A stretch of DNA of 43,690 nt. It comes from a virus. The notes under the pieces were generated by a model. The model made no database searches, had not been told where the DNA came from, and saw nothing but the letters and a program-made list of their open reading frames with translations. This document shows positions 5,746 through 38,582 of this stretch, in pieces. The number at the start of each line of letters is the position of its first letter. The first letter of the stretch is position 1. The stretch covers positions 1-43,690 of the IMG/VR virus record IMGVR_UViG_3300028045_000033. One strand, given 5' to 3'. A program made the position numbers and the translations under genes.

Positions 5746-6013
5746 GCAAATGAAAGACAAGTATACTGAGCTTATAACAGCCAATGATAAACACGAAACC
5801 GATATGATAGACAAGATATCGTTAAAACACGGCATGCGGTTAACCATCCACTATGTCATAAGCCTTGGTAATTATCTGGATTATCTCAGCGGAATGGGTA
5901 TTGACGATGACGGATACTTCCTAGCAAAGCATAACGAAGCATATAATATATCGACCGACTGCCAGAATAGAAGTAATGATATTTGGGATACATTGAGCGG
6001 GGTGGTGGTATGA
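5735..6013 (+). CDS. Hypothetical protein between helicase and methyltransferase
   Basis: 92 residues, helical and acidic, with no recognisable motif; the C-terminal part (FLAKHNEAYNISTDCQNRSNDIWD) is rich in Asn and Asp. AGGAG lies upstream within the end of the helicase gene, and the last codons GGGGTGGTGG supply the ribosome site for the methyltransferase. The tight coupling suggests co-expression with replication genes only. Confidence 0.7.
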   Translation: MNLEQMKDKYTELITANDKHETDMIDKISLKHGMRLTIHYVISLGNYLDYLSGMGIDDDGYFLAKHNEAYNISTDCQNRSNDIWDTLSGVVV

Positions 6014-6900
6014 TTAAACAACTTGATCTATTTGCCGGTGTTGGCGCGTTCGCACTAGCTGGAGAACGGCATGGTGTTAAAAGCGTTATGTCCGTAGAAA
6101 TAGATAAATACGCATGTAAAGTATTAAGACACAATTTCCCAAATATGGAGGTATATAATAATGACATCAGAGAACTTAGAACAGATTACGTTTCAGAACA
6201 TCATGGAAAAATCGACATCATCACAAGCGGATTCCCATGTACATCTTACAGCATCGCAGGAAAACGAAAAGGATTTGACGACCCTCGAACAGGTGATTTA
6301 TTCGATCAAACGCTCCGCTTTATTCACGCTCTCAAACCTAAAATATTCATCCTTGAAAATGTTAAAGGGCTTCTTAATCACGAAAAGGGGAAAACCTTCG
6401 GTGCAATGCTCACTCGAATGGGGGAATTGGGGTGTTATGATGTCCAATGGCAAGTACTCAACAGCAAAGATTTCGGAGTCCCGCAAAACAGGGAAAGGGT
6501 GTATATTGTCGGAAGTCTTAGAGGAGAATGTTTCAGAAAAATATTTCCTATCAGAAAAAACAATGAAAAATATAAAGTTCAAAGAAGCTCTAAAAAAACA
6601 TCGTTAGAGTGGGTAGCTGATTTTAGAAATGATGAAGGATTACGTATAAAAAAGGATCTTGTTTCATATACCCTTTTAGCACAAGCAAGACAAGACGGGA
6701 CAGCAGGACAAAATATAATAAAAATAAAGGCAAAATCTATGATACGTAGACTTATCCCTTTAGAATGTCAACGGCTACAAGCATTCCCGGACACTTGGTA
6801 TGATGGCCTTGAAATGTCAGACAGCCAAAAATATAAACAAATGGGTAATAGTATTACAGTGTCAGTTTTAGAAGAAATATATAAAAGGATTGAATTATGA
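6010..6900 (+). CDS. DNA (cytosine-5) methyltransferase
   Basis: 296 residues with ordered C5-methyltransferase motifs: I DLFAGVGAF (6-14), IV FPCTSYS with catalytic Cys77, VI ENV (116-118), VIII QNRERVYIV (159-167) and X QMGNSI (277-282). The segment between VIII and X (about 175-265) is the target-recognition region and is short, so the recognition site is probably simple. Motif IV reads PCTSYS rather than the common PCQxFS. No restriction endonuclease is adjacent; the likely role is to protect phage DNA from host restriction or mark it. ATG 6010 overlaps the previous stop and follows GGGGTGG. Confidence 0.92.
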   Translation: MIKQLDLFAGVGAFALAGERHGVKSVMSVEIDKYACKVLRHNFPNMEVYNNDIRELRTDYVSEHHGKIDIITSGFPCTSYSIAGKRKGFDDPRTGDLFDQTLRFIHALKPKIFILENVKGLLNHEKGKTFGAMLTRMGELGCYDVQWQVLNSKDFGVPQNRERVYIVGSLRGECFRKIFPIRKNNEKYKVQRSSKKTSLEWVADFRNDEGLRIKKDLVSYTLLAQARQDGTAGQNIIKIKAKSMIRRLIPLECQRLQAFPDTWYDGLEMSDSQKYKQMGNSITVSVLEEIYKRIEL

Positions 6901-7271
6901 AAGTCTGTACCAAATGCCTAAAAGATAATACCGAAGTAAAGTTTTATGACAACTGTTCTAAATGTGTCGAGTGTCAAAAGTCATCAGTTAAGAAATATCT
7001 AAAAAATAAAAAACAACTGTATGTATGCAAAAACTGCTTAAAGGTTGTACACAGCAAAGACATGGATGGTAGCAGAAATTGTCCACAATGTGCGTCGTTG
7101 TTTGATGCCATATCCGAAAGAGTTTTGAAAAATGAGCAATATCGCAACATGCCAAAAGAAGACCGAGTCGAGCAAACGGAACGGTGTAAGCGGTATGGCA
7201 AAATGAAAGATGGTGATAAAAAATATATCAAGTACCTAGAAGATGAGCAAGCTAAGAAGGATAAATTATGA
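6897..7271 (+). CDS. Cys-rich zinc-binding protein
   Basis: 124 residues with CTKC, CSKCVEC, CKNC and CPQC pairs (residues about 4-64), enough for two zinc-ribbon sites, then a charged helical tail (KEDRVEQTERCKRYGKMKDG). The pattern resembles small zinc-ribbon proteins that bind nucleic acid. Overlaps both the methyltransferase and RtcB by four bases (ATGA), so it may be translated in a fixed ratio with RtcB. No family named. Confidence 0.65.
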   Translation: MKVCTKCLKDNTEVKFYDNCSKCVECQKSSVKKYLKNKKQLYVCKNCLKVVHSKDMDGSRNCPQCASLFDAISERVLKNEQYRNMPKEDRVEQTERCKRYGKMKDGDKKYIKYLEDEQAKKDKL

Positions 7272-8419
7272 AAATTATAAATACTGAAAAATTACCAATT
7301 AAAATGTGGTTAGAAGAAATTGAAGACGGTGCTTTGAATCAAGCAAAAAACTTAGCTAACTTACCATTTACATTCAAATGGGTGTCAATAATGCCAGATA
7401 GTCATCAGGGTTATGGTATGCCTATTGGAGGAGTATTAGCAACTAAAAATGTAGTTATTCCAAATGCGGTCGGAGTTGATATTGGTTGTGGCATGTGTGC
7501 TGTTAGAACAAATATAGATAATTTAGAAATAAATGATTTAAAATCAATAATGAATGGTATTAGAAAAAATATACCTGTTGGTTTCAATCATCAAAAAGAA
7601 CCTATGCAATGGGATTATTTCAATAACGCACCTGATACTTATATTATACAACATGAATTAGAAAACTCAAAATATCAATTAGGGACACTTGGAGGAGGTA
7701 ATCATTTTATTGAAATACAAAAAGGGTCTGATGGTTTTATATGGATAATGATACATTCAGGATCAAGAAATTTTGGTTTTAAAGTAGCAAAAGAGTATCA
7801 TGAAAAAGCCAAAAAACTTTGTGAGAAATGGTACTCAGATTTACCAAATAGTGATCTTTCATTCTTACCTATAGGAACTAAAGAAGCAGAAAATTATTTT
7901 AATTCTATGATCTTTGCTTTAGAGTTTGCCAAAGAAAATAGATTTAGAATGGTGGAGGAAGTAAAGAAATGTTTTCATTTAATTAGTGATGGCATATCGT
8001 TTGACGATACAATTAATATTCATCATAATTATGCTAGATTTGAAAATCATTATGGTTCAAATGTCATGGTTCATAGGAAAGGTGCGACATCAGCTAAAGT
8101 TGGAGAATTAGGCATTATACCCGGATCACAAGGAACTAAGAGTTATATTGTAAAAGGGAAAGGTAATAAGGAATCATTTATGTCATGTTCTCACGGCGCT
8201 GGTCGTAAAATGGGTCGAAAGGAGGCTCAAAGGAAGTTATGTCTTAAGGATGAACAAAAAATACTTGATGACCAAAATATTTTACATTCAATAAGAGGTA
8301 CTACTGATCTTGATGAGGCAAGTGGAGCATATAAAGATATATCAGAAGTTATGAATAATCAATCAGAGTTAGTAGATATTGTCACAGAACTAACACCATT
8401 AGCTGTTATAAAAGGATAA
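7268..8419 (+). CDS. rtcB: RtcB-type RNA ligase
   Basis: 383 residues, close to the size of bacterial RtcB. Visible signatures: MPDSHQGYGMPIGGV, GVDIGCGM with metal ligands Asp71 and Cys74, LGTLGGGNHFIE, IHSGSRNFG, HHNYA, VHRKGAT, GSQGTKSY and SCSHGAGR with His309, the residue that becomes guanylated in the family. RtcB joins 2',3'-cyclic-phosphate or 3'-phosphate ends to 5'-hydroxyl ends using GTP and manganese. In a phage the plausible job is repair of tRNA or mRNA cut by host anticodon nucleases or toxins. No archease or RtcA gene is nearby. Confidence 0.95.
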   Translation: MKIINTEKLPIKMWLEEIEDGALNQAKNLANLPFTFKWVSIMPDSHQGYGMPIGGVLATKNVVIPNAVGVDIGCGMCAVRTNIDNLEINDLKSIMNGIRKNIPVGFNHQKEPMQWDYFNNAPDTYIIQHELENSKYQLGTLGGGNHFIEIQKGSDGFIWIMIHSGSRNFGFKVAKEYHEKAKKLCEKWYSDLPNSDLSFLPIGTKEAENYFNSMIFALEFAKENRFRMVEEVKKCFHLISDGISFDDTINIHHNYARFENHYGSNVMVHRKGATSAKVGELGIIPGSQGTKSYIVKGKGNKESFMSCSHGAGRKMGRKEAQRKLCLKDEQKILDDQNILHSIRGTTDLDEASGAYKDISEVMNNQSELVDIVTELTPLAVIKG

Positions 8420-11768: not shown

Positions 11769-12029
11769 ATGGCAATAACAACAATAGACACAAGCTATAA
11801 AAATGGGTGTACAATATGCAACCAAGAAATAGACATTGATGGTGAGGAGTTAGAACAAACAAAAATTGTTTGCGAAATTAGCGACGATCTTACAATGATA
11901 AAAAAGGGTAACTATGCAGAGTTATATTATCTTAAAGATGTTTTGTGTGTTGTTTGGGACGCACTGGGAATATATAACAATAAGCATGAAAAGTATAGGT
12001 TAGAGATAAACATAGAGGAGAACAAATGA
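11769..12029 (+). CDS. Hypothetical protein
   Basis: 86 residues with CTIC near the start and an acidic, beta-rich body (LKDVLCVVWDALGIYNNKHEKYRLEINIEE). The ending resembles small phage proteins of unknown function that contain a WDALG helix. RBS GAGGGG upstream. It overlaps the HEXXH gene by four bases. Confidence 0.6.
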   Translation: MAITTIDTSYKNGCTICNQEIDIDGEELEQTKIVCEISDDLTMIKKGNYAELYYLKDVLCVVWDALGIYNNKHEKYRLEINIEENK

Positions 12030-12298
12030 AAATACCAAAGAAAATTAGAATCATAGGCAAAACATACGATATCAAAATAGTTGATCCTGTAGACATCTAT
12101 CAGAACGATGGCAATATACAATATAACATTAGTGAAATAAGGGTAAAAAAGAGTCAATCCAGAGAGTGTCAAGAGCAAACATTCTTACATGAGATAACAC
12201 ACGCCATGATGGATACATTGGGTATCGACATGGGAGAACGTGACATTGACTGTGTAGCCAGTGTCCTACAGCAAATTATACCTCAAATAGAGGACTGA
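12026..12298 (+). CDS. HEXXH metallopeptidase-like protein
   Basis: 90 residues: a beta-rich N-terminus (IPKKIRIIGKTYDIKIVD) and a helix carrying HEITH (55-59), the gluzincin zinc motif, followed by MMDTLGI and an Asp/Glu region. It resembles small phage proteins related to ImmA/IrrE or SprT-type peptidases. If active it would cleave a host or phage protein in the cytoplasm; the substrate is unknown. Last gene before the structured leader of the surface-modification operon. Confidence 0.65.
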   Translation: MKIPKKIRIIGKTYDIKIVDPVDIYQNDGNIQYNISEIRVKKSQSRECQEQTFLHEITHAMMDTLGIDMGERDIDCVASVLQQIIPQIED

Positions 12299-12388: not shown

Positions 12389-12448
12389 AAACAGGGGTGT
12401 ATTATGATAAAAACAATAGAAAACAGGGGTATATTTTGACAACAATAG
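12389..12448 (+). repeat. Tandem duplication of a translation start region
   Basis: 12389-12419 (31 bases) and 12421-12448 (28 bases) are near-identical tandem copies beginning AAACAGGGGT and ending AACAATAG. The first copy has an ATG and opens an 11-codon frame; the second has a TTG that opens the glycosyltransferase. The two starts are 32 bases apart and in different frames. Confidence 0.85.
12404..12439 (+). CDS. 11-codon leader peptide
   Basis: ATG 12404 follows AGGGG by six bases and encodes MIKTIENRGIF. Its TGA (12437-12439) overlaps the TTG start (12436) of the glycosyltransferase, so ribosomes that finish the leader could restart there. It arises from the tandem duplication and may be only a by-product, but the coupling geometry is good. 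Confidence 0.4.
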   Translation: MIKTIENRGIF

Positions 12449-13245
12449 GACTTAAGGGGGCGTCAGGACTTGGTGACACTATACTGGCATATCCGATAGT
12501 AAAATACTATGCTGATAGATATGACGTTGTTTATTATATGACTGACTATCCAGAGCTATATGAGACACTTAGAAACGTTGTATGTAGTAAACACGAAAAA
12601 GTAAATTATATTAACATAAGAGGTGGTATAAAACATCCTGTGAATATACGTTTCACCTACTGTGGTAGAAAATACACCGAGGGTACAAGCCAATTTCAAG
12701 ATACATGCATGTCAGCGGGGGTACCAAAGACGCTTGAATGTAAAATAGATTGGACTATAAAAAACAAACAAAATGACTACAGGAATGATAAACCTGTATG
12801 CGTGTTATCTGCACCTTATGAACCATTCGGTAGGGAGGACCAGTGGGGAAAATTACTAAGAATCAATAATGATGTAATGGACGCTATCGTAGAATCATAT
12901 AAGGATAGGGTTGATTTTGTGCAGATAGGTAATAAATATACCCTTTATAAAGTTCCAAATGTGAAACATGATCTTGTAAACAAAACAAGTGTATCAGATT
13001 TAATGGATATAGTATCTACGTGTGATATAGGGTTATCCCAAATAGGTAATCTATTGCCTATGTGCGAGGCATTAGGGAAAAAGAGTTTTACAATATTCAG
13101 TAAAAAAGCTTTAATGTGTGATAATAAGTTTCTAAACTCAATAACACCAGATAAGGTTGTACATGATAGATCAAAGAATTGTAGTATAATAGACGATGAC
13201 ATAGATAACGCAGTAAGGAAATTCGGTGAAACAATTAATTTATAG
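12436..13245 (+). CDS. GT9/heptosyltransferase-like glycosyltransferase
   Basis: 269 residues from TTG 12436. The N-terminus (GLKGASGLGDTILAYPIVKYYAD) is the Gly-rich start of a GT-B fold as in ADP-heptose LPS heptosyltransferases. A C-terminal segment (DIGLSQIGNLLPMCEALGKKSFTIFSK) fits the donor-binding region where GT9 enzymes place the alternating Gly/His motif. Alternative in-frame GTG 12397 is less likely because AGGGG lies six bases before the TTG. The likely role is modification of a host surface glycan or virion glycan together with the next genes. Confidence 0.65.
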   Translation: MTTIGLKGASGLGDTILAYPIVKYYADRYDVVYYMTDYPELYETLRNVVCSKHEKVNYINIRGGIKHPVNIRFTYCGRKYTEGTSQFQDTCMSAGVPKTLECKIDWTIKNKQNDYRNDKPVCVLSAPYEPFGREDQWGKLLRINNDVMDAIVESYKDRVDFVQIGNKYTLYKVPNVKHDLVNKTSVSDLMDIVSTCDIGLSQIGNLLPMCEALGKKSFTIFSKKALMCDNKFLNSITPDKVVHDRSKNCSIIDDDIDNAVRKFGETINL

Positions 13246-13939
13246 TGATGTAGTAAAACGATTCAATGGCCGTCGTGTAGTTATAATCGGATCTGCTCCG
13301 AGTGGTAAAGACTATAATACATGTGATAATATAGAATCATATGATGATATAGTCAGGGTTAACAACTATAAAACAAAGGGTGTAAGTAAACGCGGTATAC
13401 CATACGATTATTCAAAAAGTTTAGGTGTTAGGACTGATTATCATTACTCATTTTATGGTGGTTCTATACGTAAAACGCAAGATGATCTATATAGGGATGG
13501 TATAAAAGCGCATCTATGTAAATGTCCTAATGATGAATGTCATGTCACTGACTGGCATATTAAAGTTAACCAGAGGCAAGGTGGGGACTTTAGGCCGATA
13601 TATAGACGGCGAGAAAAGTTTTGGTTTAAGCCTGTTTATATCCCCGAAAAGGGGCATTATATGCAACTATTTAACCTATTGAAAAAGCATGTACCTAGTA
13701 CCGGATTCGCGTGTATTTGGGAGATGATACAATGTAAGCCAAAAGAGCTATATATCACAGGGTTTGACTTCATGAAGACACCTGTGCATAATGTAGACGA
13801 ACCGTGGTTAAAGGGGCGTGCAGATGATCCTATTGGACACGATTGGAACGCGGAAGCGGAACTATTTAAAAAATGGGCGTTTAAGTATGATTTTATTAAA
13901 ATGGACCCAGTATTACGACGGAGGGTAGGACTCAAATGA
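13226..13939 (+). CDS. GT29 sialyltransferase-like protein
   Basis: 237 residues from GTG 13226 (AAGGAA five bases upstream). Three GT29 sialylmotifs can be seen: L-like, RRVVIIGSAPSGKDY to YDDIVRVNNYKT (16-50); S-like, PSTGFACIW to ELYITGFDF (157-182); VS, His205-x4-Glu210. GT29 enzymes transfer sialic acid from CMP-sialic acid. No sialic acid synthesis genes are present, so a donor would come from the host, or the enzyme uses another sugar nucleotide. GT42-like folds share parts of this pattern and are the main alternative. It overlaps the GT9-like gene by 20 bases. Confidence 0.7.
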   Translation: MKQLIYSDVVKRFNGRRVVIIGSAPSGKDYNTCDNIESYDDIVRVNNYKTKGVSKRGIPYDYSKSLGVRTDYHYSFYGGSIRKTQDDLYRDGIKAHLCKCPNDECHVTDWHIKVNQRQGGDFRPIYRRREKFWFKPVYIPEKGHYMQLFNLLKKHVPSTGFACIWEMIQCKPKELYITGFDFMKTPVHNVDEPWLKGRADDPIGHDWNAEAELFKKWAFKYDFIKMDPVLRRRVGLK

Positions 13940-14499
13940 TTAATAGATTTAAGAAGGAAATAGTCAGTAAAATGGTACTCAAAAATAAGATTGATAATAT
14001 CAAAGAACACAAAGATTTGCTGTTTAAGTATAAAGGCTGTGTTTATCCGGATTACATAAGGCGCGGTAATGCAATAAAGTATATACTGCCATATGCTAAA
14101 TACTTTCTAAATGGTGATATCTTGGATATAGGCGGTACAAAAGAATGGCACTACCCCGAATCGGAGTATATTAATATCAATAAAGGTGATGGATACCACG
14201 CCATGAAATTGCCCAATAAAAAGTATGATGGTATAATCAGCTCTCATTGTTTGGAGCATCTCAAAAGTCCATTTTATTCATTAAAATACTGGACAAATAG
14301 ACTTGTAAGAGGTGGGTGTTTGTTTTTGTACCTACCACATGAAAACATGCGGTACTGGTCCTGTGATAACCCACTTCATTTGCATGTGTTTACACCTGAG
14401 ATAATAAAGTGTTGGTTAGAGGATTTAGGATATAAAAACATAATAACAAGTGGTCAGGATTTATACTATTCATTTAGTGTTATAGGGTGGAAAAAATGA
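13936..14499 (+). CDS. Class I SAM-dependent methyltransferase
   Basis: 187 residues. A basic N-terminal region precedes GDILDIGGTKEWHYPESEYI (motif I), then YDGIISSHCLEHLKSPFYSLKYW (motif IV region with the SHxLEH pattern) and LVRGGCLFLYLPHE. This is the Methyltransf_11-like family often acting on small molecules or sugars. Within a glycosyltransferase operon it may methylate a transferred sugar; target unproven. ATGA overlap with the sialyltransferase-like gene. Confidence 0.75.
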   Translation: MINRFKKEIVSKMVLKNKIDNIKEHKDLLFKYKGCVYPDYIRRGNAIKYILPYAKYFLNGDILDIGGTKEWHYPESEYININKGDGYHAMKLPNKKYDGIISSHCLEHLKSPFYSLKYWTNRLVRGGCLFLYLPHENMRYWSCDNPLHLHVFTPEIIKCWLEDLGYKNIITSGQDLYYSFSVIGWKK

Positions 14500-15005: not shown

Positions 15006-15240
15006 TTTTATTAAATATTTCTTATGGCAACGTAAAAAGAAACAGCGTGTTACATATCCCAAAGGATACAAAGTAATATACATGCCAAATAGCATATCAT
15101 CTGACATGTTCGGGGCTGTATTAGCGTTACAAAAAAAGCTTAAAGACGATAAGGGTATATACTACACAGCGGATGAATGTTATAATTTATTCAAAGCTTA
15201 TAACAATGATTTTAATAAAATTAGGGGAGTAGTAAATTGA
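14998..15240 (+). CDS. Hypothetical protein of the surface-modification operon
   Basis: 80 residues with a basic N-terminus (FLWQRKKKQR) and a mixed alpha/beta body (GYKVIYMPNSISSDMFGAVLA). No catalytic motif is visible. It overlaps the neighbouring gene before it by eight bases and the methyltransferase after it by four. Confidence 0.55.
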   Translation: MINFIKYFLWQRKKKQRVTYPKGYKVIYMPNSISSDMFGAVLALQKKLKDDKGIYYTADECYNLFKAYNNDFNKIRGVVN

Positions 15241-15863
15241 AACTAATACAAAAAGATGGCTATCTAAAAGCAGAAAACTATAAAACGATTGAATATAACG
15301 ATGACTATTTTACTCACTTATTGAGTAAATACGAATGTAATAAACAATCTGAAATGAATAACGAAATAAATAGTATCAGAACCAAGCTTGTAAACGAGTA
15401 TTGCGCGCTACAATCTATCCTTGATTATGGGTGTGGTACTGGTAATTTTATCAAGTATCATGATCTATCTGGGTATTGTTATACTTATGGATATGAGTTA
15501 ATACCGCAAACTGTCAAATGGTTAAAAAAAGAAGGTAAATATATAGACCCATATAATTTTATACCAGGTTGGATGAAAGGTGTTTGCATGTGGGATGTAT
15601 TGGAGCATATACCAGACCATAACAAGATATTTAATGAAATTGAAATGGGTATGTATCTATTTGTGTCGATACCAATATTCAAAGATTTAGATAAAATTAA
15701 GGAATCAAAGCATTATATTCCTAATGAGCATCTATGGTATTTTACACTACAGGGTTTTACTGATTATATGCGAACTCATGAGTTTGTTAGATTGTCAGTG
15801 GATAACGCTGAAGAGGTGGCGGGGCGTGAAGATATTAAAACATTTGTATTTATAAAACAATAA
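15237..15863 (+). CDS. Class I SAM-dependent methyltransferase, second copy
   Basis: 208 residues from TTG 15237 (AGGGGAG upstream; TTGA overlap with the previous stop). Motif I is ILDYGCGTGNFIKYH, the acidic strand region follows as YTYGYELI, and motif IV is MWDVLEHIPDHNKI with MGMYLFVSIPIF after it. The C-terminus (HLWYFTLQGFTDYM) matches Methyltransf_23/UbiG-like sugar or lipid methyltransferases. Different from the 13936 enzyme, so two methylations or two substrates are likely. Confidence 0.78.
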   Translation: MKLIQKDGYLKAENYKTIEYNDDYFTHLLSKYECNKQSEMNNEINSIRTKLVNEYCALQSILDYGCGTGNFIKYHDLSGYCYTYGYELIPQTVKWLKKEGKYIDPYNFIPGWMKGVCMWDVLEHIPDHNKIFNEIEMGMYLFVSIPIFKDLDKIKESKHYIPNEHLWYFTLQGFTDYMRTHEFVRLSVDNAEEVAGREDIKTFVFIKQ

Positions 15864-17272: not shown

Positions 17273-17317
17273 ATGGCTGATATAAGTGAAAAGCATAAAG
17301 GTAAGAAATGGCGGTAA
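17273..17317 (+). CDS. 14-codon peptide upstream of the GIY-YIG gene
   Basis: MADISEKHKGKKWR with AAGGTG seven bases upstream. The SEKHKGKKW segment looks like the core of a NUMOD3 DNA-binding repeat, which normally accompanies GIY-YIG homing nucleases, but NUMOD3 usually lies after the catalytic domain. It overlaps the nuclease start by ten bases. It could be a leader, a leftover fragment or chance. Confidence 0.25.
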   Translation: MADISEKHKGKKWR

Positions 17318-17682
17318 AGACTGAAGAGTTAATTTCTGGTATAGTTTCAAGGCTAGAAAAGCAACTAATATCAGGTAAATTATCAACTAAGTTCAGCCCA
17401 GTTATATACCTAATAAAAAATACTAAAACAAATAAATCATATATAGGCCGTACTCGTCAAGAGTTTTTTAAAAGATGGCTACAGCACTTTAGGGATATGG
17501 ATGAAATAAAATTTCACAAAGAGATAACAAAAGACAACATATGTGATTGGTCATTTAGAATATTGTGTATTATGGATTGTAGTGTTACTGATAAAGAGAT
17601 GTCTAAAAAAGAACAACATTATATTAAAAAGTATGATTCCATAACTAATGGGTATAATGATCGTAATGAAACTAAAGCGTGA
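17308..17682 (+). CDS. GIY-YIG endonuclease
   Basis: 124 residues. PVIYLIKNTKTNKSYIGRTRQEFFKRWLQH carries the GIY and YIG elements and the Arg, with a Glu in the final helix (MSKKEQHYIKKYDSITNGYNDRNE). There is no extended C-terminal DNA-binding region, so this is a minimal nuclease, perhaps a reduced homing enzyme. Its position directly before the small terminase gene is a frequent site for mobile or packaging-associated nucleases. RBS AAAGGTAAG. Confidence 0.85.
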   Translation: MAVKTEELISGIVSRLEKQLISGKLSTKFSPVIYLIKNTKTNKSYIGRTRQEFFKRWLQHFRDMDEIKFHKEITKDNICDWSFRILCIMDCSVTDKEMSKKEQHYIKKYDSITNGYNDRNETKA

Positions 17683-24634: not shown

Positions 24635-25288
24635 ATGGCTTCAATAACAATGGCTTCTACAAGTCGGTTAAGGGTTGAAAGTGCAATCGGTACTACATCA
24701 TCAGGTACGACTATTTGTTTATGGGTTATACCTTCGGCCTTATCCACTAGTACAAACCTAAGAATGTGGTTGATGTCAAATAAGTGTGTAGGATCAAATA
24801 CGAATACATCTGGAGATATAAGAGTTATTGACCTAGGTGGGACAGTGTTTCAAACCGTTACTGATTCGTCAACACTAACAATAGGTACACCAACATTTAT
24901 ATCATTAAGCATAAGCGGTTCAACAGTAACTTTAGGAGTAAACGGGGTTAATGTTGATTCGGATTCGGTTACAACTTTAGTATCAGATACGGGTTTTCAT
25001 ATTGGTGAAACTACAAACGCATTACCAGGAGAATACGGGAGTATTAGAGTTTTTAATAGAGAATTATCACAGGTAGAAATTAACACAATATATACCACAC
25101 AAGGCAGAGACGGAATTGTAGAAGATCAAGTATATAGGGTTGATGGTACCGAAGTATCACAGGGTGATACTATATCAACTAACACATTAAAAAATATAAT
25201 GGATACATCAGATTCACTAGTAGTATCTAATACTATAGTAGGTGGTAACGGACTTATCCCAGTAGGGTATAGAAGGAGAATAGCATAA
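24635..25288 (+). CDS. LamG/ConA-like lectin-fold protein
   Basis: 217 residues. SLSISGSTVTLGVNGVNVDSDSV and FHIGETTNALPGEYGSIRVFNRELSQVEINTIY match the beta-jelly-roll and closing helix segment of laminin-G-like domains. Probably binds glycans. A related protein is at 37857. AAGGGTAAG upstream at long spacing and direct abutment to the previous stop suggest coupled translation. Confidence 0.7.
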   Translation: MASITMASTSRLRVESAIGTTSSGTTICLWVIPSALSTSTNLRMWLMSNKCVGSNTNTSGDIRVIDLGGTVFQTVTDSSTLTIGTPTFISLSISGSTVTLGVNGVNVDSDSVTTLVSDTGFHIGETTNALPGEYGSIRVFNRELSQVEINTIYTTQGRDGIVEDQVYRVDGTEVSQGDTISTNTLKNIMDTSDSLVVSNTIVGGNGLIPVGYRRRIA

Positions 25289-25584: not shown

Positions 25585-26157
25585 ATGAGAAACATCAAAA
25601 CATTACGCGATATAGGCAAGGATAGAAACTGTCTTATTATTGGCGGTGGTCATAGTGTCAATAATCTTGAACTATCCGCAATACCGCGCAATATGTATGT
25701 TATCGTTACTAATAACCACATGTTACCACATGCTAATATGATAGTTTATTACGATAAGGATATGAGAGACTATTTTAATAAGACCAAGATAATGCCGAAT
25801 CAGCTATTAGTGGGATTTAAACACAGCGATAAAATAGACCATACAAGTAATAATTGTACTCACTATTTCAACTATGAAAGCATGGTATTTGGTGATAGTG
25901 GGTTTCATGCCTTACAGTTTGCCGATCAGGTATTTGGGTTTAACAATATCTATTTGTCTGGTTATGACTATTCGGTTAAGGGCGATAGTTACCATTATAA
26001 CGAGGATAAAAGCAATAAGACAAAGCAAGACAGATTTATAACATGGAGTATAGGGAAGGTCCTCAATCAATACAATGATATTGAGTGGAAAAACAACATA
26101 TTTAACTGTAATCGTAACAGCGCATTAGACATCTTTAAATATGGGTTACCCTATTGA
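25585..26157 (+). CDS. Sialyltransferase/DUF115-like glycosyltransferase
   Basis: 190 residues. NCLIIGGGHSVNNLELSAIP opens a Rossmann-like nucleotide-sugar fold; VIVTNNHMLPHANMIVYYDKDM follows; the second half has DSGFHALQFADQVFGFNNIYLSGYDY and HYNEDKS. The SGFHAL to GYDY segment parallels PSTGFACI to TGFDF in the GT29-like protein at 13226, so the two may share a fold. Alternatives are MptE/DUF115-like proteins. Its location among fibre genes suggests it may act on a virion protein. Confidence 0.55.
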   Translation: MRNIKTLRDIGKDRNCLIIGGGHSVNNLELSAIPRNMYVIVTNNHMLPHANMIVYYDKDMRDYFNKTKIMPNQLLVGFKHSDKIDHTSNNCTHYFNYESMVFGDSGFHALQFADQVFGFNNIYLSGYDYSVKGDSYHYNEDKSNKTKQDRFITWSIGKVLNQYNDIEWKNNIFNCNRNSALDIFKYGLPY

Positions 26158-37686: not shown

Positions 37687-37857
37687 ATGGCATTAACAAC
37701 CGCAGAAATAGCAAAAGTAAAAAAGATAATTAAAAAACAAGACGATAGCGAGACTGTAGATGAAATAAATAGAATTGCATACGAAGAAATAGCAATACTG
37801 CGAGATCAGATAAAAGCTATAGATGATAAGAGAATACAAGATATAAAAAACCTATAA
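37687..37857 (+). CDS. Small helical protein in the fibre cluster
   Basis: 56 residues (MALTTAEIAKVKKIIKKQDD then helical to KRIQDIKNL), charged, possibly a fibre-assembly helper or fibre shaft coiled coil. AAGGAG lies nine bases upstream. It overlaps the following gene by one base. Confidence 0.6.
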   Translation: MALTTAEIAKVKKIIKKQDDSETVDEINRIAYEEIAILRDQIKAIDDKRIQDIKNL

Positions 37858-38582
37858 TGAAACCACCAGTAGTTGCCAATAGATTAGGCTCTTTATCACA
37901 AGTCAATAATAGCGTTATTGGTGTTAATGGTGCTATTGATGGTACAGTCACTTACTCAAGCGTCAAGTTTGATAATGGTGCTGATACAGGAACGGTGAGA
38001 AATAACCGAGTGGTATTTCTAGAAACATCAGGCACACTATTACCTAATACAGATCAATATACTGTAGAGTATTGGTGTCAACCAACATGGGCATGTACTG
38101 ATTCAGTGGCACAGGATGGAGTTCAGCACCTACTATGGGGGTTGCATACTGATACATCAGACTCTACAGACTGGGAACACATAAACATATTTAATGGTTC
38201 TTCGTATTGGTATTCAAAAACGCCATCAGGTACAGAACTTAATCCAAGACTCGACACAATAAGTGGTTTAACGTGGACAGCTAGTGAAATCTTTCACATT
38301 GCTTGGGTAGTTGATAAGAATGGTATAGGTGGTGGTAGTGATACACTAAGAGTATATAAAAATGGTACTTCCATATTTAACTATACAGGTTCACGCACAA
38401 CGGGTGCAAGTAGCACAATTAAATCATTTGTATTGGGTTCATATGATAATTTTACGGCTGGTGCAAGTGCTGGTGCCAAGACCGTATTTGATAATGTTAG
38501 ATTATACGACTATGCAAAGACCGACTTTTCGGATAGATTTAATGAGCGTGGTGGATTTAATGACCATCAAATAATATTATAG
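37857..38582 (+). CDS. LamG/ConA-like lectin-fold fibre protein
   Basis: 241 residues. FLETSGTLLPNTDQYTVEYW and WVVDKNGIGGGSDTLRVYKNG to KTVFDNVRLYDYAKTDFSDRF follow the jelly-roll order of laminin-G-like domains (strand, loop, RVYKNG hairpin, DNVRLY strand). Related in type to the 24635 protein. Probably a carbohydrate-binding receptor-recognition protein at the tail end. Confidence 0.75.
   Translation: MKPPVVANRLGSLSQVNNSVIGVNGAIDGTVTYSSVKFDNGADTGTVRNNRVVFLETSGTLLPNTDQYTVEYWCQPTWACTDSVAQDGVQHLLWGLHTDTSDSTDWEHINIFNGSSYWYSKTPSGTELNPRLDTISGLTWTASEIFHIAWVVDKNGIGGGSDTLRVYKNGTSIFNYTGSRTTGASSTIKSFVLGSYDNFTAGASAGAKTVFDNVRLYDYAKTDFSDRFNERGGFNDHQIIL

What the first reader, a model, noticed from the sequence alone, without database searches (positions are those of the whole stretch)
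13226..13939. Phage gene with the three sialyltransferase (GT29) motifs
The sequence shows an L-like motif (GSAPSG ... YDDIVRVNNY), an S-like motif (PSTG ... ITGFDF) and His205-x4-Glu210, all in family order. GT29 is best known from animals and some plants and protists; a phage member is unusual. No sialic acid synthesis genes are present, so the phage would use a host donor or the enzyme has another donor.
Basis: partly seen in the sequence, partly recalled or inferred. Interest (0 to 1): 0.72.

Follow-up and report, generated by a model that had tools for sequence, protein, structure and literature searches.

The report
Phage sialyltransferase-like gene in glycan cassette
This phage carries a gene for a sialyltransferase-type enzyme, related to enzymes best known from animals, and it belongs to a conserved set of sugar-adding and methyl-adding genes shared by dozens of uncultured phages, often lying among the genes that build the virus particle.

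Summary
In detail: window 13226-13939 encodes a 237-aa protein with L-, S- and VS-like sialyltransferase motifs. Single-sequence searches find almost nothing, but pattern scans of IMG/VR found its own subfamily (42 further viral sequences, 30-44% identical) and a broader phage GT29 group. Most of the subfamily hits only Pfam GT29, mostly just below the cut-off; a GT29-group profile built without it finds it at E 2e-21; AlphaFold2 (pLDDT 94.6) and Foldseek return GT29 and GT42 sialyltransferases first, DUF115/MptE fold weaker. It is a GT29-like subfamily, not a textbook member: it misses Pfam's cut-off, has Ser for the L-motif Asn, and lacks the animal disulfide. A phage GT29 is not itself unprecedented. 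More interesting is the context: the gene overlaps a GT9-fold gene and a methyltransferase gene, and this cassette, usually with a DUF115-like gene, recurs in about 50 uncultured phage contigs, in many between head and tail genes. In two phages a GT29 relative is fused or adjacent to a CMP-sugar synthetase, with NeuB nearby. Best reading: a CMP-sugar (nonulosonate or Kdo) transferase using host donors to build a methylated glycan, probably on virion proteins; donor and acceptor are inferred.

The parts
13226..13939 (+). GT29-like glycosyltransferase gene (237 aa), the finding
13277..13366 (+). L-motif-like region, residues 18-47 (VVIIGSAPSG...YDDIVRVNN); Ser23 stands where GT29 has Asn
13694..13771 (+). 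S-motif-like region, residues 157-182 (PSTG...ITGFDF)
13787..13807 (+). possible motif-III equivalent, residues 188-194 (HNVDEPW); H188, N189, W194 invariant in 43 (partly selected when the subfamily was picked)
13838..13855 (+). VS-motif-like region, His205-x4-Glu210 (putative general base and partner), invariant in 43
12397..13245 (+). GT9-fold (heptosyltransferase-like) gene, overlaps the GT29-like gene by 20 nt; immediately upstream of it in 41 of 44 loci
13936..14499 (+). class I SAM methyltransferase (Methyltransf_23, at the cut-off), overlaps the GT29-like stop by 4 nt; homologues in 31 fetched loci
15237..15863 (+). second methyltransferase (phrog_6564, 1.6e-40); homologues in 40 fetched loci
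25585..26157 (+). DUF115/GT42-like sialyltransferase-fold gene, homologue of the gene usually at position -2 in relatives; in the window it lies in the structural region

Best explanation
The protein is a sialyltransferase-fold glycosyltransferase of a phage GT29-like subfamily. It most likely takes a 2-keto-3-deoxy sugar (a nonulosonic acid, or Kdo) from a host-made CMP donor, with His205 as general base, and adds it to an acceptor started or extended by the GT9-like enzyme next to it; the methyltransferases then cap the glycan. The acceptor is most likely one of the phage's own virion proteins. Shown: ORF, homology, predicted fold, conserved catalytic-type residues, conserved cassette, its frequent position among head and tail genes, and linkage of broader-group GT29 relatives to NeuB and CMP-sugar synthetase. 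Inferred: donor, acceptor, order of steps, virion target.
For: GT29 homology: 30 of 43 subfamily members match PF00777 and none matches DUF115 or GT42 models; hhalign to the phage GT29 group, prob 99.8, pairwise E 1e-27; that group hits solved GT29 at 1e-14 and GT42 only at 0.07. Fold: AF2 pLDDT 94.6, pTM 0.92; Foldseek PDB top hits are sialyltransferases (2wnb 3e-6, CstII 2e-5). Cassette: overlapping genes, recurrence and order, GT9 adjacency 41/44 and GT9/GT29 distance correlation r 0.68, 0 of 2000 permutations; GT9 fold. Position: portal (PF04860) in 20 of 27 records searched, 26 of them cassette records plus the window; gene order head-cassette-tail (labels partly by eye). CMP donor: CTP_transf_3::GT29 fusion with NeuB in the same cluster (L173), and contiguous GT29, CMP-synthetase, NeuB in L174. 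Precedents: Maf (PF01973/DUF115) enzymes O-glycosylate flagellin Ser/Thr with nonulosonic acids and can use Neu5Ac or Kdo (PMC11339370); phages glycosylate their virions (cited in PMC12363180).
Against: The protein itself matches no Pfam model and the relatives scored one by one gave 17-22.6 bits or nothing against a cut-off of 23. Ser replaces the Asn of the GT29 L motif, which from published GT29 structures (my knowledge) contacts CMP. TM-scores to GT29, GT42 and the MptE-type structure 8sd5 are all about 0.5, so fold alone does not choose. In the window the cassette lies upstream of the terminase, not between head and tail genes, and no collagen-like protein is encoded. NeuB and CMP-synthetase linkage is seen only in the broader group, not in this subfamily. 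No virion glycan has been measured.
Confidence: 0.55

Rival explanations
1. Same enzyme class, but the cassette alters the host's surface glycan (LPS core, capsule or O-antigen) during infection or lysogeny, masking receptors against superinfection.
For: GT9 enzymes are best known from LPS core heptose addition (one search matches WaaF and WaaC); an insertion among virion genes can also be a moron locus; the Paracoccus homologue lies next to a GT8-like gene on a bacterial plasmid.
Against: Recurrent placement among head and tail genes fits late expression with virion proteins better than early or lysogenic expression; no membrane-anchored partner such as a flippase was noticed in the cassette (not searched systematically).
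Confidence: 0.25
2. The protein is a DUF115/MptE-like fold member (pterin kinase-like or Maf-like), not GT29-related.
For: Foldseek matches 8sd5 with TMq 0.51; the DUF115-like neighbour profile aligns at prob 86.
Against: GT29 profile comparison far stronger (prob 99.8, E 1e-27 against 5e-6); PF00777 and not PF01973 matches the subfamily; His-x4-Glu conserved.
Confidence: 0.05
3. A sialyltransferase-fold enzyme that has switched to a non-CMP donor (for example ADP- or UDP-sugar), or a non-catalytic partner of the GT9 enzyme.
For: Loss of the L-motif Asn throughout the subfamily and absence of donor-synthesis genes.
Against: H205 and E210 strictly conserved, and R44 and N46 conserved in nearly all covered sequences; GT42 and GT29 relatives all use CMP donors as far as known to me.
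Confidence: 0.12
4. The cassette modifies phage DNA bases (glycosylated and methylated nucleotides).
For: Phage DNA glycosyltransferases exist (general knowledge); the window has a DNA methyltransferase at 5983-6900.
Against: GT9 and GT29/GT42 enzymes are not known to me as DNA glycosyltransferases; the cassette methyltransferase at 13936 matches general SAM models (Methyltransf_23/11), not DNA methyltransferases.
Confidence: 0.03

Closest known systems
CAZy GT29 sialyltransferases (pig ST3Gal1 2wnb, ST8SiaIII, ST6GalNAc2)
   Same: Fold, order of L-, S- and VS-like motifs, PSTG and GF of the S motif, His-x4-Glu
   Different: About 11-21% identity in structural alignment; Ser for L-motif Asn; no L/S disulfide; no N-terminal membrane anchor visible in the sequence; below the Pfam cut-off
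Phage and giant-virus proteins annotated glycosyltransferase family 29 (A0A6J5NLG3 uncultured Caudovirales phage; Mimiviridae ChoanoV1)
   Same: Sialyltransferase fold
   Different: Only 14-22% identity in the structural alignments; their gene context was not examined here
GT42 bacterial sialyltransferases (Campylobacter CstI, CstII)
   Same: Fold, GxGP-type first motif
   Different: Profile similarity to GT42 much weaker than to GT29; no subfamily member matched a GT42 Pfam model
Maf / DUF115 (PF01973) flagellin glycosyltransferases
   Same: Related fold; protein O-glycosylation with CMP-nonulosonates as a working model (PMC11339370); a DUF115-like gene accompanies the cassette
   Different: Sequence profile closer to GT29; single-domain; no flagellin context
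GT9 heptosyltransferases (WaaF, WaaC, TibC)
   Same: Fold of the overlapping upstream gene
   Different: Only about 11% identity; donor unknown; Pfam GT9 matched by 1 of 35 members, weakly
Mycobacteriophage virion glycosylation (Che8, Corndog, Myrna)
   Same: Phage-encoded glycosyltransferases acting on virion proteins (PMC12363180)
   Different: Sequence or fold relationship between those enzymes and this cassette was not tested

Membership tests
GT29 | Match to PF00777 above curated cut-off (23 bits) | tested here: not met
   No match for this protein; 5 of 9 relatives scored one by one gave 17.2-22.6 bits and 4 none; best subfamily E-value 1.7e-6
GT29 | L motif (G-N-S/G ... D ... R-x-N) | tested here: inconclusive
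   Gly22, Asp40, Arg44, Asn46 present; Ser replaces Asn in 35 of 36 covered sequences, Gly in one
GT29 | S motif (PSTG ... GF) | tested here: met
   Residues 157-182, aligned with ST3Gal1 through the group profile
GT29 | Motif III (His/Tyr-Tyr region) | tested here: inconclusive
   HNVDEPW at 188-194 is conserved in the subfamily but is not the canonical motif
GT29 | VS motif His-x4-Glu | tested here: met
   H205 and E210 invariant in 43 sequences
GT29 | GT29 fold | tested here: met
   AF2 model with PDB top hit 2wnb, E 3e-6, prob 1.00; TM about 0.5
GT29 | Cys pair linking L and S motifs (animal enzymes) | tested here: not met
   The L-motif Cys of ST3Gal1 (RRCAVVGNS) is replaced by Val (RRVVIIGSA), read
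GT29 | CMP-sialic acid donor | not testable with these tools
   No assay; indirect: NeuB and CMP-synthetase linkage in relatives
GT42 | Match to GT42 profile or structures above GT29 | tested here: not met
   No GT42 Pfam match; GT42 structures score below GT29 in profile searches, though Foldseek E-values are close
DUF115 / MptE-like (PF01973) | Match to PF01973 | tested here: not met
   None of 43 members; hhalign much weaker than to GT29 (against 60)

The most novel reading that the evidence does not exclude
A previously undescribed, widespread phage virion-glycosylation system: a DUF115-like, a GT9-like and a GT29-like enzyme plus one to four methyltransferases, inserted among the structural genes of many uncultured phages, borrows host LPS-core donors (ADP-heptose and CMP-Kdo) or nonulosonates to coat the virion, for instance a collagen-like protein, with methylated glycans.
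Probability: 0.3. Interest if true: 0.8.

Novelty: new variant of a known kind. Interest (0 to 1): 0.58.

Why it matters
Sialyltransferase-type enzymes are usually discussed in animals and pathogens. Here a divergent branch is widespread in environmental phages as part of a conserved multi-enzyme cassette; tblastn with two members of the branch gave no match in cultured-phage records. If it decorates virions, it extends phage particle glycosylation beyond the described mycobacteriophages and gives a concrete gene set to test. NeuB-linked relatives suggest that some phages make their own sialic-acid-like donors.

Tried and rejected
Single-sequence searches (Pfam, PHROGs, INPHARED tblastn, IMG/VR back-translated peptides) found no relative; the one PDB phmmer hit below 0.001, a xylanase at 8e-4, was not supported by profile or fold searches and was taken as chance. 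The genome contigs pattern had a wrong, out-of-frame spacing and found nothing useful; distribution in bacterial chromosomes and prophages is therefore untested. DUF115, GT42 and DNA-modification readings were considered and ranked lower. The collagen-like protein as acceptor is not general, since the window has none. The subfamily profile alone barely reaches PDB GT29 (E 0.3); the link to GT29 rests on the group profile, hhalign and fold.

Full report
Observation. The ORF at 13226-13939 (+) translates without a stop to 237 aa and carries the three motifs as described. Alone it matches nothing in Pfam, PHROGs, cultured phages or close IMG/VR sequences; a Paracoccus plasmid protein gave a weak tblastn hit (27.5%, E 6e-3) and shares all three motif regions.

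Relatives. A back-translated S-motif pattern (PSTG, 19 residues, GFDF) found a broad set of viral GT29-like proteins; 19 of 22 members of alignment A2 match PF00777, best 2.4e-22, and its profile finds solved GT29 enzymes first (2wnb, 4e-17). The pattern with the window's own spacing found its subfamily: 42 further non-redundant sequences, 30-44% identical to the window protein. 30 of 43 subfamily members match PF00777 (best 1.7e-6) and none matches DUF115 or GT42; in a sample of nine, five scored 17-22.6 bits, below the cut-off of 23, and four nothing.

Statistical tests. An HMM of 18 phage GT29-like proteins without the window protein scores it 72 bits (E 2.3e-21), against at most 9 bits for other window ORFs and 500 shuffles; a leave-one-out subfamily HMM gives E 3.6e-74. 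hhalign of subfamily against GT29 group: prob 99.8, E 1e-27; against the DUF115-like neighbour family: prob 86, E 5e-6.

Structure. AF2 on the 43-sequence alignment gives pLDDT 94.6, pTM 0.92. Foldseek top PDB matches are GT29 ST3Gal1 (3e-6), GT42 CstII (2e-5), ST6GalNAc2 and ST8SiaIII; the MptE-type structure 8sd5 comes at 4e-3. TM-scores near 0.5 mean fold alone does not separate these families. BFVD returns viral proteins named GT29, including one from an uncultured Caudovirales phage.

Residues. H205, E210, P157, T159, G160, G179-F182, H188, N189 and W194 are invariant in 43 sequences; PSTG and GFDF were selected by the search, and H188/N189/W194 partly by the subfamily filter, but H205 and E210 were not. 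Ser23 replaces the L-motif Asn in nearly all.

Cassette. In the window the GT29-like gene overlaps the upstream gene by 20 nt and the downstream methyltransferase by 4 nt. The upstream protein has the GT9 heptosyltransferase fold (AF2 pLDDT 90; Foldseek 3tov 5.5e-9, 1psw, TibC). Homologues of these neighbours recur next to the subfamily in about 50 viral contigs, in the order DUF115-like, GT9-like, GT29-like, methyltransferases. GT9 lies immediately upstream in 41 of 44 loci, and GT9 and GT29 distances correlate (r 0.68, 0 of 2000 permutations). Of 27 records searched (26 subfamily records and the window), 20 have a Pfam portal and 18 have collagen repeats; at least 13 loci show head-type genes upstream and tail-type genes downstream (labels from representatives read by eye). 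The window keeps a DUF115-like gene (PHROG 4603, alpha-2,3-sialyltransferase, 1.5e-11) away from the cassette at 25585-26157, and its cassette sits upstream of the terminase.

Donor. The window and the searched subfamily records lack CTP_transf_3 (42 records); NeuB is absent from the window and the subset searched. In the broader group, L173 has a cytidylyltransferase::GT29 fusion, a DUF115-like gene directly upstream and NeuB in one cluster near a tape-measure gene, and L174 has contiguous GT29, CMP-synthetase (just below the Pfam cut-off) and NeuB genes. This supports CMP-nonulosonate use in the group and, by extension, a CMP sugar here. CMP-Kdo and ADP-heptose are standard Gram-negative donors (general knowledge), which would explain why the phage needs no donor genes; the host is unknown.

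Novelty. Phage sialyltransferase-like genes have been annotated before (BFVD; TayeBlu phage, PMC12772287). tblastn with two subfamily members found nothing in 50,697 phage records at E 1e-2 and 1e-3, and paper searches turned up no title or abstract describing the cassette (open-licence library only).

Verdict. Real, well-supported sialyltransferase-fold enzyme; new subfamily near GT29; function in glycan building likely, virion target plausible but untested.

Noticed in passing
25585-26157 (+): Second sialyltransferase-fold gene (DUF115/GT42-like, PHROG 4603) in the structural region of the window.
   Followed up: partly
7268-8419 (+): RtcB-type tRNA splicing ligase (phrog_1075, 1e-122) in a 44-kb phage record.
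   Followed up: no
12026-12298 (+): Small protein with HEITH motif and a weak Peptidase_M78 (IrrE/ImmA-like) match, directly upstream of the cassette.
   Followed up: no
17308-17682 (+): ORF resembling a GIY-YIG endonuclease (by eye), upstream of the small-terminase-like ORF.
   Followed up: no
24635-25288 and 37857-38582 (+): Two ORFs resembling LamG/concanavalin-like domains (by eye), possible virion surface proteins.
   Followed up: no
L010:7399-9366, L027:5958-7973: Phage proteins with an N-terminal MptE/DUF115-like domain, an unidentified middle region and a C-terminal GT29 domain in one chain.
   Followed up: partly
L173:6757-14598, L174:6949-9022: Phage gene clusters with NeuB, CMP-sugar synthetase and GT29; one has a cytidylyltransferase::GT29 fusion.
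   Followed up: yes
L086, L073, L052 and others: Collagen-like (Gly-X-Y) proteins near the portal in many cassette phages.
   Followed up: partly
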